Of a DNA stretch of 64,000 nt, positions 17,100 to 22,265 are shown one piece after another. The stretch's first letter is position 1. Each line of letters opens with the position of its first letter. Under the pieces are notes generated by a model. The model was not told the origin of the DNA. It saw only the letters and a program-made list of their open reading frames with translations, and made no database searches. A program made the position numbers and the translations under genes. Source of the stretch: an uncultured Porphyromonadaceae bacterium (lineage in GTDB: Bacteria; Bacteroidota; Bacteroidia; Bacteroidales; Muribaculaceae); contig CANRVB010000007.1 of NCBI GenBank assembly GCA_947643165.1, forward strand, positions 1 to 64,000. The letters are read 5' to 3'.

Positions 17100-17146
17100 A
17101 GAATCCGGAGAGTGTGACTATGGCCACATTCTCCGGATTCTTTTTT
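17100..17146 (+). terminator. rho-independent terminator of the sialidase gene
   Basis: AGAATCCGGAGA (17100-17111) pairs perfectly with TCTCCGGATTCT (17130-17141) and runs into six T residues (17141-17146). Confidence 0.88.
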
Positions 17147-17198
17147 GCAACAAAGGGGATATTTCGCAAAAAAGGGGATCCAGGGCGATGTAATTTTG
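17147..17198 (+). promoter_or_regulatory. regulatory region of the capsid cassette: direct repeats, shared element and -7 box
   Basis: Two 14-base direct repeats that differ at one base, GCAACAAAGGGGAT (17147-17160) and GCAAAAAAGGGGAT (17166-17179), lie 19 bases apart. Within them is GGGATATTTCGCAAAAAAG (17156-17174), which recurs exactly on the minus strand at 58711-58729. In both places exactly 16 bases separate it from a -7 box, here TAATTTTG (17191-17198). No canonical -33 TTTG is present, so the element may bind an activator or act as an alternative upstream promoter element. Confidence 0.6.
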
Positions 17199-17243
17199 CA
17201 ATGTAAACGGGAACAAACCCGTTGGCAAAAACACAACAAAACT

Positions 17244-17672
17244 ATGAAAAAGAAAGTGAAGAGAGTGGAGAACGCCGAGAACGGTATGACCGGAATGGAT
17301 ATGACGGGGACCAACGGAGTGCTGAACGTCGCAGCGCTTTACGGCGGATCGACCGAAGAGGAGGAGAGAGAAGAAAAAGAGGGGAGAGAGGAGAACGCCG
17401 AGATCGGGGAGAATGAGGTGAGCGAGGAGCGAAATATGATAGATGTGGCGGAGGAAACACGCGAAGATGCCAAACTGACCGTGGAGGAGATGATAGCTGC
17501 GGCCGAGGAGCGTGGATATCTGCGCGGGCTGAATGCGGCAGCCGAGTCGGAGATGGCGAAGCCCGGTCTATGGCAAACAGATATGGTGTGCATAAGTGAC
17601 CCTGACAAGGGTCAGGAAGATCCGGTAGGCCGGTTTCTGTCGGCAAGACGACGGAGCGCATGGGATGAGTAG
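17244..17672 (+). CDS. acidic protein of the capsid cassette, possible scaffold
   Basis: The 142-residue protein has a basic first ten residues, then a strongly acidic middle (glutamate-rich, residues 36-80) and a helical segment near 85-110. It ends in a basic tail, SARRRSAWDE. No signal peptide or recognised domain is present. It is the first gene after the regulatory region and precedes the capsid gene; small acidic helical proteins in that position are often capsid scaffolds, but that is inference from position and composition only. Isoleucine and arginine codons are mainly ATA and AGG/AGA/CGx, unlike the ATC-rich secDF. Confidence 0.6.
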   Translation: MKKKVKRVENAENGMTGMDMTGTNGVLNVAALYGGSTEEEEREEKEGREENAEIGENEVSEERNMIDVAEETREDAKLTVEEMIAAAEERGYLRGLNAAAESEMAKPGLWQTDMVCISDPDKGQEDPVGRFLSARRRSAWDE

Positions 17673-17717
17673 GTGCAGGGGAACAGTTGATACACACAAC
17701 AAGCAAATACAAGGAGT

Positions 17718-17798
17718 ATGGACAGTAAGAAAAAGGGATTCATAGACTTGATGAAGATGATCATCGAGATTATAGTGAAGCTGATAAAGAAGAACTAA
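17718..17798 (+). CDS. possible 26-residue amphipathic peptide
   Basis: A short reading frame, M-DSKKKGF-IDLMKMIIEIIVKLIKKN, lies between the acidic protein and the capsid gene. A helical wheel would place I/L/M on one face and K/E/D on the other, as in membrane-active or delta-haemolysin-like peptides. AAGGAG lies one base before the ATG, too close for normal Shine-Dalgarno spacing. It could be a lytic or holin-like peptide, a capsid-binding helix or a chance frame. No family is recognised. Confidence 0.4.
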   Translation: MDSKKKGFIDLMKMIIEIIVKLIKKN

Positions 17799-17830
17799 CA
17801 ACTAATAAGAACGAAAAAACACTTAAAACA

Positions 17831-19138
17831 ATGGGAAACACAACAGTAACAGAGAAGAAAGAGATGAGAGATGTAGTAAGAGCAACAGGCACACAGGGAG
17901 GCCTGCACATTGGCGACGGGCCGCTTACGTCGGCACTGACCCGCGAAGGGAGCGATGGGCTGCTGATGAGCGAGGTAGAGGAGCGCATAACACGAATACG
18001 CCCCATGTCGACTCCAATCGACCAAATAACCCGTATGACAGGGAGCCGCACGGCCCGCAGTATGGAGGTGAGCTACTACCGTGTAGACAGCAAGCCGGAG
18101 TCGGCAATGCTGGAGGAGTGTACTGAGATAGCCGGCAAGGAGTATGACGGGTGCGCGGTGTACAGAATAAAGACCACGGACGACACACTGTTCGCACCGA
18201 CCGAGACCATATTGATTCCGGATATGTCGGGAGAGCCGGAGGGAACGGACACGACACAAAATCCGCTGGTGCTGTATGTTACGGAGCGAGTGAACGGAAG
18301 TGACGGTGTAGAACTGCATGTGATAGCCGTGAACGGAGTGAAGCAGGACGGACTTCGCCGTATCGGTGAGACCGAAGGCGGGGAATCGCTTGTAAGAATG
18401 GGACGTGCAGCATCGGAGCTGGATGTGCAGACAGGCCAGTTTCAGGCACTACCTAAGAAAGCGAGCAATTACTGCCAGATCTTCAAGGCCCAGATAGAGC
18501 ACTCCACCGTCATGAACCTGACCAAGAAGGAGGTTGGCTGGTGCATGGAGGATCAGGAGGAATCGGCAGTGACCGATATGCGTCTGGGTATGGAGAAGAG
18601 CTTTCTTTTCGGCAGCAAGGCGCGCCTGAGCAATAAACGCACCGGCGACGAGACACTGCTGACTGGTGGCATCTGGACTCAGGCGGGGAAAACGGTCAAG
18701 CTTGAGAAGGATCTGAGCCACAGCGGTCTGATAAAGCTGATGCGTGCGGCATTTACAGGCGAATCGGCAGGCAGTACCCGAAAGATACTTCTGGCGGGCT
18801 CGGGTCTGATAGAGCGTCTGAGCAATCTGGAGAGCGTAAGGACTCTGTCGGCTCAGGATAAGGTGACCCGCTGGGGTATAGACTTCACGGAGATAGGATC
18901 GAAATTCGGCACTCTATACACGATACACAGCGAGGTGTTTGATATGTGCGGACACAGCGAGGACGGTATGATAGTGGATCCGGACTATATAACCAAGTAC
19001 AGTTTCATGCCTTTCGGTGTAGAGCATCTGGATCTGAAGAGCAGCGGCATACGCAACAGTGATGCGCTGGTTCTGACAGAGGCGAGCTGCGTGGTACTAC
19101 GCCATCCGCAGGCCCATATACGAGTAGTCTGTGTATAA
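17831..19138 (+). CDS. phage-type major capsid protein (SU10/DUF5309-like)
   Basis: The 435-residue protein matches the pattern of the SU10/DUF5309 capsid group (HK97 fold). An early GGL and a helix with EVEERITRIRPMSTPIDQITR are followed by NYCQIFKAQIEHSTVMN, a KKEVGWCMEDQEESAVTDMRLGMEKSFLFG helix, and a Leu/Ile-rich GLIKLMRAAF region. The IDFTEIGSKFGTLYTIHSEVFD strand pair comes next, and the family-like end is EASCVVLRHPQAHIRVV. The assignment rests on recognising these patterns by eye. It appears full length. It is flanked by a connector-like gene and a portal-like gene, which supports a virion role. There is no signal peptide or membrane segment. It could still be functional, a remnant, or a domesticated shell protein. 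Confidence 0.65.
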   Translation: MGNTTVTEKKEMRDVVRATGTQGGLHIGDGPLTSALTREGSDGLLMSEVEERITRIRPMSTPIDQITRMTGSRTARSMEVSYYRVDSKPESAMLEECTEIAGKEYDGCAVYRIKTTDDTLFAPTETILIPDMSGEPEGTDTTQNPLVLYVTERVNGSDGVELHVIAVNGVKQDGLRRIGETEGGESLVRMGRAASELDVQTGQFQALPKKASNYCQIFKAQIEHSTVMNLTKKEVGWCMEDQEESAVTDMRLGMEKSFLFGSKARLSNKRTGDETLLTGGIWTQAGKTVKLEKDLSHSGLIKLMRAAFTGESAGSTRKILLAGSGLIERLSNLESVRTLSAQDKVTRWGIDFTEIGSKFGTLYTIHSEVFDMCGHSEDGMIVDPDYITKYSFMPFGVEHLDLKSSGIRNSDALVLTEASCVVLRHPQAHIRVVCV

Positions 19139-19190
19139 AGCAGTGAAGAGAAGAAGATAGAGGAGAGAAAAAGAGAGAGGGAGAGAAGAT

Positions 19191-19733
19191 ATGATAGAGA
19201 TATTCACAACCGAACAGCTCGCGGCGGAATGGATGCGCCGCACCGGACTGCTACCTTTGAGAAGCGACTGTTCGGTCGACCTCTCTACAGGAGAGGATAC
19301 GGACGGAGGTACGGAACAGCGGATAAAGGACTGGTATGCAGGACTGCTGGAGAGTGCAGACAGCCGCTATCTGCCGACAGGCGACTTTGGGGCAACCACG
19401 ATCAAGACCGAAGAAGAGGATGCGGGAAGCGTAATACTAAAACCTCCCGGCGACTGCGCAAGAGCGCTCAGCGTGAAGCTGACAGGGTGGAAAAATGAGG
19501 CGACAGTGACCGCATACGACGAGGCTACGGCACGACGCCAGCGCAATCCGTATACCAGAGCGGGACGGCAAGTTCCGGTGGCAATGCTGACGGCCGACGG
19601 CAAAACCATAAGGGCATGGCCCGGAGGCTGCGGCGAAACAGAATCATTAACCGGGGTGATGAGACCGGATGAAAGCATGTATGCGCTTGACCGCGTGCTT
19701 CTCACCACCATAAAACCAGATCTATACGACTGA
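19191..19733 (+). CDS. probable head-tail connector/adaptor protein
   Basis: This 180-residue protein follows the capsid gene by 52 bases, and its TGA overlaps the portal ATG by one base (TGATG), so they are likely co-translated. No domain is recognised with confidence. Its start, MIEIFTTEQLAAEW, looks like the N-terminal helix of small connector proteins, and its place between capsid and portal genes suggests the same. The function is inferred from context only. Confidence 0.5.
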   Translation: MIEIFTTEQLAAEWMRRTGLLPLRSDCSVDLSTGEDTDGGTEQRIKDWYAGLLESADSRYLPTGDFGATTIKTEEEDAGSVILKPPGDCARALSVKLTGWKNEATVTAYDEATARRQRNPYTRAGRQVPVAMLTADGKTIRAWPGGCGETESLTGVMRPDESMYALDRVLLTTIKPDLYD

Positions 19734-21142
19734 TGATAACACTGAGAGAAATACACGATGCATGGCAGGAGGGACGTGAATTCAGGGCCAAACGGCACCG
19801 CCACTTAGACTACAGCTACGGGCGACAGTGGAACGACATTGTGGTATGCAACGGGAAGCAATACATAGAGCGCGACCTGGCCATAGCCACAGGCAAGCAT
19901 CCTCTGACCAACAACATGATACGTCCGCTGCTGAAGACAATAGTAGGCAGAATGAGACACAGGCTCGAGACGGGCGAGGCACCCCGGACGTCGGACATGA
20001 CGACGCATAGGCGGAATATGCTCGATGAACTTGACTGCAGGATGCTGGAGGAGTTTCTGATATCGGGCTGCGCAGTACAGCGGATAGTGAGCGAACGACG
20101 CAGCGGAGGCACGGGGATATGGGTAGACAATGTGGATCCGGACCGATTTGTTTGCAACAGGTATACTGACCCACGAGGAAACGACATAGAGCTGACCGGA
20201 ATGCTGCACGACATGAGCATAAGAGAGGTGTGCGGACGGTTTGGCGAAGGGGACGAGGGCAGGATGAGAGCAATAGCGCGGTTGTATGAGGGGCAAGAGA
20301 CGGGCAACCGGTTAAGTCTCGGGAACAGTGAGAGCGAACGGTTCGGGCGTGCAAGCCGCGGCCGATGCAGGGTGATAGAGGGCTGGGCGCTTGAAACAGT
20401 GAGCATGATAAAGTGTCACGACCGTTCGACGGGACGGGTGTTCAGCGTAAGAGCGGGCGAGAGTGACGCGCTTGACCGCATAGACGCCGAACTGAGCAAA
20501 GAGGGGAAGGAGAAACTGACCCGCCGAGCAGACACAGCACTGGAATGGCACTGCTACTGGTATGCACCAGGCGGAGAGCTACTGAGCGATTACCGGTCGC
20601 CCTACGGCCACGGGAGCCACCCGTTTTGCGTGAAGCACTATCCGCTGACCGACGGCGAGATACACTCGCTGGTAGAGGATGTGGTAGAGACACAGCGCTA
20701 TATCAACCGCCTGATAACACTGATAGATCAGGTGATGGGGACATCGGCAAAGGGCGTGCTACTGTTTCCGGAGAGCCAAAAGCCGCTTGACGTGACATGG
20801 GAGGAGATAGGCGAACGGTGGGCACGTCCGAACGGAGTGATACCTTACCGCCCAAACGGATTGGGAGAGGGCCCAAAGCAGATAATCACCTCAACCCAAC
20901 CGATGAATGCCTACAACCTACTGGAGATAGAGATGAGGCTGATGGAACAGATATCGGGAGTGAGCGGCGCGTTGTCGGGCCAGGCACCCACGGGGATGCA
21001 GTCGGCAGCACTGTATGACGCGCAGACCCAGAACGGAATGATAGCGATAATGGATATGCTTGCATGCTTCGATTCGTTCAGAGAACAACGCAACAGAAAG
21101 ATAGAGGAGTGCGTATGGCCAGGCGGAAAGGAGAGAGGATGA
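19733..21142 (+). CDS. phage portal protein, P22-like, apparently short
   Basis: Portal proteins form the dodecameric ring at one capsid vertex through which DNA passes. The 469-residue product has an N-terminal HRHLDYSYGRQW...LTNNMIRPLLKTIVGRM region, a central QRYINRLITLIDQVMG stem-like helix, and the tell-tale ISGVSGALSGQAPTGMQSAALYDAQTQ near residue 420. It ends about 40 residues later in WPGGKERG. P22-like portals typically run to 600-750 residues, so the C-terminal part seems to be missing, and the next 120 bases do not encode it in another frame. No terminase gene lies beside it. Gene order, capsid before portal, is the reverse of the usual order. Confidence 0.62.
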   Translation: MITLREIHDAWQEGREFRAKRHRHLDYSYGRQWNDIVVCNGKQYIERDLAIATGKHPLTNNMIRPLLKTIVGRMRHRLETGEAPRTSDMTTHRRNMLDELDCRMLEEFLISGCAVQRIVSERRSGGTGIWVDNVDPDRFVCNRYTDPRGNDIELTGMLHDMSIREVCGRFGEGDEGRMRAIARLYEGQETGNRLSLGNSESERFGRASRGRCRVIEGWALETVSMIKCHDRSTGRVFSVRAGESDALDRIDAELSKEGKEKLTRRADTALEWHCYWYAPGGELLSDYRSPYGHGSHPFCVKHYPLTDGEIHSLVEDVVETQRYINRLITLIDQVMGTSAKGVLLFPESQKPLDVTWEEIGERWARPNGVIPYRPNGLGEGPKQIITSTQPMNAYNLLEIEMRLMEQISGVSGALSGQAPTGMQSAALYDAQTQNGMIAIMDMLACFDSFREQRNRKIEECVWPGGKERG

Positions 21143-21213
21143 ACGGATGAAAGAACCGGCGATTATAACTATTATTAACTTAGATGTGCGCTTTTATCGC
21201 CCATGCAGTGTTG

Positions 21214-21221
21214 TAAATTTG
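21214..21221 (+). promoter_or_regulatory. -7 element inside the phage-like cassette
   Basis: TAAATTTG matches TAnnTTTG, about 40 bases before the 21264 gene. TTTT at 21192-21195 is 18 bases upstream in place of TTTG. The last two cassette genes may thus have separate expression. Confidence 0.45.
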
Positions 21222-21263
21222 CCAACAGCATAAGCACATAACCAATGAGCTATAACTGATACG

Positions 21264-21770
21264 ATGAAAAGACCCACACACCAACAGCAGGATCCGGGCA
21301 CACCTCGCCACGCAGGAAAGGCAGAAGAGGTGAGAGTGTGCCAGGACCGCTACACCGCCGAGAGGGACGCGGCTGTAGCAAAGACGTACAGACGGCTGAT
21401 ATTCAGCCGAACAAAACAGGACGGGCACAGAAGCTATGATGAACTGCTCGAAGAGGTAGCCCGCTCCCCTGCCCCCGGCTACTATGTGAGCTACAGCTAT
21501 GCACTGCGCAAAGTGAAGGAGGCGATAAACAAGCCTGAAACGGCCAACGGATGTCACGGCAAATGGGCCGAACTAAGCCAACGGTCGACAGAAGAGGCAG
21601 AACGGGCGGGGATAGGGATAGACAAAGCCCTGAGCCGGGTGCTCGCCTCGGGGAGGGCCGGGAGCTTCTTCCTGGGCAAATGGGGCGTGAAACGGGCGTT
21701 GCAGAATCACAGGAAGCGCATGAGACGTCCGCCGTCGGCCGACAGAACGGCAGCCTGGAATCAAGAGTGA
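21264..21770 (+). CDS. basic protein of unknown function in the capsid cassette
   Basis: The 168-residue protein is rich in arginine and lysine, with several predicted helices. SYDELLEEVARSPAPGYYVSYSYALRKV in the middle and WGVKRALQNHRKRMRR near the end stand out. No signal peptide, membrane helix or known domain is seen. The basic C-terminus would suit nucleic acid binding. It has a possible promoter of its own and is 45 bases upstream of the next cassette gene. Confidence 0.6.
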   Translation: MKRPTHQQQDPGTPRHAGKAEEVRVCQDRYTAERDAAVAKTYRRLIFSRTKQDGHRSYDELLEEVARSPAPGYYVSYSYALRKVKEAINKPETANGCHGKWAELSQRSTEEAERAGIGIDKALSRVLASGRAGSFFLGKWGVKRALQNHRKRMRRPPSADRTAAWNQE

Positions 21771-21815
21771 GCATAGCGGAGAGTAGCGAGAATTTAACCG
21801 AGGAATAATAGAAAT

Positions 21816-22265
21816 ATGTTTTTATCAATAAGCATAGACAGGGTGCTCGAAAAGGTGTATGCACTGAGCGCCCTCAACGCGATAGCACGCGGAGAAACAG
21901 ACGGAAGCGGAATAATAAGCGCCGACAACGGCAAGGCTCTCCGTGAGGTAATGAAGGGAGCGTTTATAGAAGTCGTGATGGCATTGCGACATCATGTGAC
22001 AGACACCAATCTCGGCGAAGCGGATGACGAGACAGAAGCTCTGACAATGAGCATAACAATGGCAGAGCAGACTGGAAGCGAAGCCGGACCAATAGTGCGC
22101 GGAGCCATAGAGGAGGCGATGGCGCTACGATGTATGGCGATGGCAGGAAAAGAGACGGCAGATGAGGCGAGGAGGCTGACAGCCGTGAGCGACGAGTATA
22201 TATCAGCGGCAAACAGGATCTGCGCAGGCGAGGGGACAAACGCGACCATAATGAGATGGGACTGA
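21816..22265 (+). CDS. helical protein of unknown function, last cassette gene
   Basis: The 149-residue protein is almost wholly helical by composition (ALSALNAIARGE, EVMKGAFIEVVMALRHH, RGAIEEAMALRCMAMAGK). Its opening MFLSISIDRVLEKVYALSA recalls the start of small head-completion-like proteins next to structural genes in Bacteroides prophages, but I cannot confirm that relationship. It has no signal peptide or membrane helix. Confidence 0.55.
   Translation: MFLSISIDRVLEKVYALSALNAIARGETDGSGIISADNGKALREVMKGAFIEVVMALRHHVTDTNLGEADDETEALTMSITMAEQTGSEAGPIVRGAIEEAMALRCMAMAGKETADEARRLTAVSDEYISAANRICAGEGTNATIMRWD

What the first reader, a model, noticed from the sequence alone, without database searches (positions are those of the whole stretch)
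17147..22265. Orphan capsid-portal cassette without terminase, tail, lysis or integration genes
Seen in the sequence: seven co-directional intact reading frames in about 5 kb (acidic protein, 26-residue peptide, SU10/DUF5309-like capsid, connector-like protein, portal-like protein, basic protein, helical protein). They are bounded by a strong terminator and a DUF3943 outer membrane gene. No terminase, tail, holin/endolysin, integrase or repressor is present from 14 to 28 kb. Established: functional phages and capsid-forming satellites keep a terminase with the portal; gene-transfer agents also carry tail genes. Inference: this is either a phage remnant whose frames are still open, or a domesticated shell with a DNA- or protein-exit vertex. 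Open frames with a one-base stop/start overlap argue for recent or continuing selection. The gene order, capsid before connector before portal, is reversed from the usual.
Basis: partly seen in the sequence, partly recalled or inferred. Interest (0 to 1): 0.78.

Follow-up and report, generated by a model that had tools for sequence, protein, structure and literature searches.

The report
Scattered gene-transfer-agent genes in gut bacteria
What looks like an orphan virus shell in one gut bacterium is one piece of a virus-particle kit that most relatives of this bacterium keep, scattered over several chromosomal places, probably to pack pieces of bacterial DNA into particles.

Summary
It is not a private relic: the capsid gene matches in 178 of 198 sampled genomes of the family, one match in 158 of them, and in six sister families. 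"No terminase" holds only locally. A large terminase with conserved motor and nuclease motifs matches in 181 of 198 genomes, usually far from the capsid gene and beside a virion protein (176 of 198). The "basic" protein is a small-terminase candidate: phage homologues share the large terminase's strand in 72 of 73 loci, upstream in 68. In 23 of 164 loci an M15 endolysin-family gene touches the capsid or portal gene. All eight families have homologues in temperate Bacteroidota phages. Capsid and portal are under purifying selection and cluster perfectly by genus. Best reading: a dispersed gene transfer agent that I found in no paper searched. Packaging and transfer are untested. In this genome (88.5% complete) terminase and virion protein were not found, so its kit may be incomplete.

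The parts
17100..17141 (+). terminator-like stem-loop bounding the cassette upstream
   Evidence: 17 pairs plus T run
17244..17672 (+). acidic protein, 142 aa: short relative of the phage protein encoded just upstream of the capsid gene (scaffold-like by position)
   Evidence: profile hits in 34 of 41 loci; C-terminal part aligns to the phage proteins, hhalign probability 87%, E 3.7e-6, both ending in a (K/R)Sx-W-D/E type tail
17718..17798 (+). 26-residue cationic peptide; not conserved, probably not part of the system
   Evidence: only in the window among 41 loci; none similar in 24 relatives
17831..19138 (+). major capsid protein, 435 aa
   Evidence: SU10_MCP E 1.3e-44; PDB 9in6 major capsid E 6.6e-12 with the family profile; 178 of 198 family genomes
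19191..19733 (+). connector-like protein, 180 aa, homologue of the phage gene downstream of the capsid gene (phrog_22135 type)
   Evidence: profile hits in phage loci at that position; phage homologues are phrog_22135; no PDB relative by sequence
19733..21142 (+). portal protein, 469 aa, lacking the C-terminal ~200 residues of the phage homologues
   Evidence: P22_portal E 5.9e-21; cassette portal frames median 477.5 aa (n 50) against phage 662.5 aa (n 108); 186 of 198 family genomes, prophages included
21264..21770 (+). basic protein, 168 aa: small-terminase candidate
   Evidence: phage homologues on the strand of the large terminase in 72 of 73 loci, upstream in 68; all-helical model, mean pLDDT 88; 168 of 198 family genomes
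21816..22265 (+). helical protein, 149 aa, relative of a phage late-region protein (phrog_19255 type)
   Evidence: 80 of 109 family genomes; prophage homologue next to the nozzle-candidate homologue

Best explanation
The cassette is the head module of a gene transfer agent (GTA) that arose by domestication of a temperate Bacteroidota phage in an ancestor of this family and its closest sister families. The kit has at least eight phage-derived genes: scaffold-like protein, capsid, connector, shortened portal, small-terminase candidate, helical protein, large terminase, and a virion protein (nozzle candidate). They sit in one to several chromosomal modules: acidic-capsid-connector-portal, small terminase-helical, and nozzle candidate-large terminase. 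SHOWN: homology, conservation, purifying selection on capsid and portal, genus-level vertical inheritance, dispersal, retention of the terminase motifs, an endolysin-family gene beside the modules in some genomes. INFERRED: in some cells the modules are switched on together; scaffold and capsid build a small head on the portal; the terminases load host DNA headful by headful with no preference for the kit's own scattered genes; connector and nozzle candidate close the vertex; the cell lyses and particles deliver DNA to kin. In the window's own genome the terminase-nozzle module was not found, so this copy is either incompletely assembled or has begun to decay.
For: Capsid gene in 178 of 198 family genomes, one match in 158, 130 of 140 among near-complete genomes. 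Large terminase 181, nozzle candidate 176, portal 186, small-terminase candidate 168 of the same 198, helical 80 of 109; these totals include some true prophages. Dispersal on single contigs: in G057 capsid at 182 kb, terminase-nozzle at 2.73 Mb, small terminase-helical at 2.83 Mb. Yet linkage in others shows they are one system: L156 holds nozzle candidate, terminase, acidic, capsid, connector, portal and basic in a row; G013 and G093 hold nozzle candidate, terminase, small terminase and helical together. Terminase ATPase and nuclease motifs invariant in 20 sequences, aligned to T4 gp17. dN/dS: capsid median 0.19 in 25 independent pairs, portal 0.16 in 14. Genus labels need the minimum number of changes on capsid (41 sequences, 18 changes, shuffles never below 28) and portal trees (27 sequences, 12 changes, shuffles never below 15). 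rpoB: shared splits 6 of 22, 7 of 20, 6 of 17, 5 of 13 for capsid, portal, terminase, nozzle candidate, above every shuffle. The 11 capsid-positive genomes on an rpoB tree (six families) form one clade. M15 endolysin-family gene within 234 bp of capsid or portal, same strand, in 23 of 164 loci. No other gene family was shared widely among the module loci.
Against: No packaging, particle or transfer data. G000 itself gave no terminase or nozzle match; the assembly is 88.5% complete, but G005 and G104 (99%) also lack both while keeping capsid genes, so decay happens. rpoB clade support is only 61, and G284 of the sixth sister family gave no rpoB; G199, the negative sister, joins at 100. Deep branches of kit trees and rpoB agree poorly (Mantel r 0.26 for capsid, 0.38 portal, 0.48 terminase, 0.73 nozzle candidate). 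Kit terminases are one group only after 41 low-scoring phages were dropped, and then with support 0.43; with all 136 phages they are not. One phage, L160, falls on the cassette side of the capsid tree. dN/dS for acidic, basic and helical proteins is near 1 over most pairs (saturated or misaligned), low only in the few closest acidic and basic pairs. No receptor-binding gene was found. Nozzle and small-terminase roles rest on position and homology; the fold search never ran.
Confidence: 0.66

Rival explanations
1. A DNA-packaging but non-transferring particle that kills relatives, as PBSX of Bacillus does.
For: Same gene content would serve; PBSX packages random 13-kb host fragments and acts like a bacteriocin (passage in PMC7667829).
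Against: No hypervariable fibre gene or immunity gene was seen as a shared neighbour in the module loci; the tool set cannot test killing.
Confidence: 0.12
2. Slowly decaying prophage remnants, independently inherited.
For: Flanks vary, some genomes have lost modules (G005, G052, G104), and the window's genome shows no terminase.
Confidence: 0.1
3. Interference with related phages: virion-like proteins kept to poison assembly of incoming phages of the same lineage.
For: Related full prophages occur in the same family (L501-L504).
Against: Selection for interference does not need the whole kit, small and large terminase with nuclease motifs, nor an adjacent endolysin-family gene.
Confidence: 0.08
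4. An active phage, or a capsid-forming satellite, that moves as a unit.
For: IMG/VR lists some cassette contigs as viral (L156-L159).
Against: Genes lie up to 2.6 Mb apart (G057), no integrase or replication gene among the eight window flanks scanned, inheritance follows genera.
Confidence: 0.04

Closest known systems
Gene transfer agents as defined by Kogay et al. 2022 (PMC9662315, passages read): RcGTA-like, BaGTA, Brachyspira GTA
   Same: phage-derived proteins, endogenised across several loci, mostly vertical inheritance
   Different: different phage ancestor and phylum; three short modules instead of one main cluster in most genomes sampled; no tail tube, sheath or tape-measure gene found; packaging and delivery unproven
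FpGTA of Faecalibacterium (PMC12946183; abstract, passages and one section read)
   Same: gut GTA candidate with TerS, TerL, portal, scaffold, capsid
   Different: a 10.5-kb operon in Bacillota with packaged-DNA evidence; that text does not mention Muribaculaceae
Temperate Bacteroides phages BS-TP4, BKO1-TP3, BF1-TP2 (PQ571277, PQ571269, PQ571263)
   Same: homologous portal (33-34%) and capsid (36-37%), terminase and small-terminase candidate
   Different: complete 64-68 kb phages with portals near 660 aa, very large proteins and regulators; genes contiguous
Phage prophages inside the same bacterial family (L501-L504)
   Same: carry homologues of portal, terminase, capsid, connector, helical and nozzle candidate
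   Different: contiguous, with endolysin, reverse transcriptase and methyltransferase; clearly separate on the portal tree

Membership tests
Gene transfer agent (Kogay 2022) | proteins derived from tailed phages | tested here: met
Gene transfer agent (Kogay 2022) | genome fully endogenised, often across several loci | tested here: met
   in G000 only one locus was found
Gene transfer agent (Kogay 2022) | mostly vertical inheritance, co-diversification with host | tested here: met
   perfect genus clustering and more shared splits with rpoB than any shuffle; deep branches agree poorly
Gene transfer agent (Kogay 2022) | mostly random host DNA packaged | not testable with these tools
   needs particles or VLP reads
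Gene transfer agent (Kogay 2022) | kit cannot be packaged whole | tested here: inconclusive
   modules up to Mb apart cannot share one head (G057), but head size is unknown
Gene transfer agent (Kogay 2022) | DNA delivered to other cells | not testable with these tools
   none
Intact prophage | contiguous head, packaging, tail, lysis, integration and replication genes | tested here: not met
Capsid-forming satellite (cf-PICI type, features recalled) | integrase or other mobility gene with its own head genes in one island | tested here: not met
   no integrase in eight scanned window flanks and none as a shared neighbour of the modules
Encapsulin (features recalled) | lone HK97-type shell without portal and terminase | tested here: not met
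   portal and terminase kept in 186 and 181 of 198 genomes

The most novel reading that the evidence does not exclude
A Bacteroidota gene transfer agent, independently domesticated from an apparently short-tailed phage lineage before this family split from several sister families, kept as separately scattered modules in most of its species, with an endolysin-family gene recruited beside them in some genera: one of the most widespread GTAs in the mammalian gut.
Probability: 0.6. Interest if true: 0.92.

Novelty: new variant of a known kind. Interest (0 to 1): 0.82.

Why it matters
If the particles package host DNA, a whole dominant family of gut commensals has a built-in DNA exchange route that annotation pipelines split into unrelated 'phage remnants'. 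It would add an independent origin of GTAs in a phylum for which I found none described, and a natural experiment on how a kit survives when its genes are unlinked, which bears on the open question of what selects for GTAs at all (raised in PMC6209664, passages read). Mouse faecal virus-like-particle data that could test it already exist (PMC7667829 section 11: 46 contigs with generalised-transduction or GTA patterns; 83 of 186 mobilisation-pattern contigs were Bacteroidetes, family not stated).

Tried and rejected
Rejected: 26-residue peptide as part of the kit; 'c18' as a connector (hhalign probability 0; it is Peptidase_M15_3); split portals in genera g4 and g7, an impression from two matches per genome (in G032 the portal is one 438-aa frame). 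G052 does look broken. Faulty and replaced: searches took the longest frame as rpoB and picked a wrong frame for G000; one search repeats them with a similarity-chosen frame, and only those numbers are used. One search crashed after the capsid step and was replaced; one search crashed and was replaced. Terminase tree: with all phages gave no clean split; one search dropped 41 of 136 phage sequences scoring 300 bits or less; both are reported. Led nowhere: PDB searches with connector and nozzle candidate; relatives of the L156 nozzle candidate in IMG/VR (itself only); neighbours of the G036 terminase as a route to the missing G000 module (local polysaccharide-type genes, not pursued). A structure of the nozzle candidate and a fold search with the small-terminase model never ran because the queue was full.
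Full report
WHAT IS THERE. Capsid and portal are firm by curated profiles and have solved relatives by sequence: capsid to 9in6 (E 6.6e-12), portal weakly to 8jov (E 1.1e-5 over 92 positions). The flanks are host genes and the 64 kb holds neither large terminase nor nozzle candidate.

HOW COMMON. With the window's capsid protein, 178 of 198 genomes drawn from the family match (130 of 140 near-complete ones), one match in 158 of the 178. Six positives are weak (E 1.6e-9 to 4.9e-6) and look like prophage capsids; without them it is 172. The family is called Muribaculaceae here because many fetched loci are identical to named records (Muribaculaceae, Paramuribaculum, Sodaliphilus, Avimuribaculum, some filed under other Bacteroidales names; match). 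In the order, 33 of 393 genomes match, strongly in this family and six others (f22, f28, f60, f68, f88, f109), plus two lone weaker ones (f20, f23). The family terminase profile gives nearly the same list (34 of 393). On an rpoB tree with 29 genomes the 11 positives, from this family and five of the six sister families, form one clade, UFBoot 61; the sixth gave no rpoB.

THE REST OF THE KIT. Real phages related to the cassette (IMG/VR loci L161-L169, L232 onward) have portal, then on the other strand small protein and large terminase, then scaffold-position protein, capsid and connector. Their terminase profile matches in 181 of 198 family genomes. Most are a distinct ~630-aa class at E about 1e-130 to 1e-186, usually far from the capsid gene; a minority are true prophage terminases (E below 1e-230). 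Motor and nuclease motifs are invariant in 20 kit terminases and align with T4 gp17; naming of the motifs is mine, by eye. In 14 of 20 fetched terminase loci an ~830-aa protein lies immediately upstream on the same strand (L313-L318, L320, L322, L325-L329, L331); it is adjacent on the other strand in L319, near in L321, absent from the stretch in L323, L324, L330, L332. It belongs with phage family phrog_32516 and matches in 176 of 198 genomes. In some phages it directly follows the connector gene (L162); tail nozzle is my guess.

THE 'BASIC' PROTEIN. Its phage homologues are on the terminase's strand in 72 of 73 loci and upstream in 68, the usual place of a small terminase. It matches in 168 of 198 genomes and its model is all-helical, mean pLDDT 88. 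Wherever both places are printed, the helical protein's gene is on the same contig within about 1.5 kb of it, except in G094. In G013 and G093 the pair is joined to nozzle candidate and terminase, which ties the modules together. Helical homologues occur in prophages of the family, next to the nozzle-candidate homologue.

DISPERSAL. On the 3.3-Mb contig of G057, capsid and portal are at 180-183 kb, nozzle candidate and terminase at 2.729-2.733 Mb, small terminase and helical at 2.832 Mb. G130, G094, G010 and G007 show the same on one contig. In other genomes everything is close (G022, G097, L156). Unlinked genes kept singly in most species are hard to explain by a mobile phage.

LYSIS. In 23 of 164 loci a Peptidase_M15_3 gene lies 3-234 bp from the capsid gene (18 loci, downstream of it) or the portal gene (5 loci, upstream of it), on the same strand (L057 and L129 are one genome). 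The seven with known handles are from genera g17 and g18. That this is the release enzyme is inferred.

SELECTION AND INHERITANCE. Independent pairs with dS below 1: capsid 25, median dN/dS 0.19 (maximum 0.56); portal 14, median 0.16 (maximum 0.52); connector 6, terminase 3; acidic 13, basic 2 and helical 5 pairs are mostly near 1, which I read as saturation and misalignment because their closest pairs are lower (acidic 0.15 and 0.27, basic 0.23), but helical has no close pair and nozzle candidate no pair at all. Genus labels fall on the capsid and portal trees with the fewest possible changes. Against rpoB, kit trees share more splits than any of 500 shuffles, but distances correlate only moderately, least for the capsid (r 0.26, p 0.019). 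Cassette capsids (51) and portals (50) separate from phages with support 0.996 and 1.0, each with one IMG/VR sequence on the cassette side: L160, which has phage gene order, and L170, which looks like a cassette contig. For the terminase the separation is weak.

WHAT WAS LOST OR CHANGED FROM THE PHAGE. The portal is about 185 aa shorter than in phages; the acidic protein keeps a relative of the C-terminal part of a ~270-aa phage protein; the small gene between capsid and connector in phages is not seen in the cassette; no shared integrase, replication or giant-protein gene stands beside the modules.

THE WINDOW'S OWN GENOME. G000 gave no terminase or nozzle match. It is 88.5% complete. All 16 other sampled genomes of the genus match the terminase profile (two of them, G118 and G131, look like prophage terminases), and in three near relatives that module lies at a contig end (G036, G185, G192), so an assembly gap is plausible; true loss is as well, since G005 and G104, 99% complete, lack both.

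LITERATURE. Full-text searches for GTA with Muribacul* found 0 papers, for Muribaculaceae with prophage, capsid, domesticated 0; GTA with Bacteroidales gave 13, with Bacteroidota 15, other combinations 5, 23, 48 and 6, judged from listings. Opened: PMC12946183 (abstract, passages, one section), PMC9662315 (passages), PMC7667829 (passages, section 11), PMC6209664 (passages). None describes this system in what I saw. Subscription papers and preprints are not in that library.

VERDICT. A gene-transfer-agent candidate: three of six defining features met, one inconclusive, two needing experiments. The claim 'works like a GTA' is stronger than 'is a GTA'.

Noticed in passing
L156-L159, L170 (IMG/VR): Fragments of bacterial chromosomes carrying this kit are filed as viral contigs in IMG/VR; L159 even holds the cassette twice in inverted orientation, probably an assembly artefact.
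   Followed up: partly
L499 20340-22436 (BS-TP4 gp7), L500 11797-13824 (BF1-TP2 gp60): GenBank calls these 'tail spike protein', but they match the large terminase profile strongly; the record's own note mentions a terminase model.
   Followed up: yes
L499 1511-17686 and L232, L240, L234 upstream of the portal: The related phages encode very large proteins (3,260 aa or more; 5,391 aa in BS-TP4) just before the portal; function unknown.
   Followed up: no
window 17718-17798: 26-residue cationic, amphipathic-looking peptide between two kit genes, not found in relatives.
   Followed up: partly
L160 (IMG/VR 2681813420_000001): Phage-type locus whose capsid is 47% identical to the window's and falls with the cassettes: the nearest free phage relative, or a cassette gene taken back by a phage.
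   Followed up: partly
G005, G052, G104: Near-complete genomes that keep the capsid gene but lack terminase (and intact nozzle candidate): possible cases of kit decay.
   Followed up: partly
L502 7850-9400: Family prophages related to the kit carry a reverse transcriptase (phrog_1423) in the late region, suggesting a diversity-generating element (inference).
   Followed up: no
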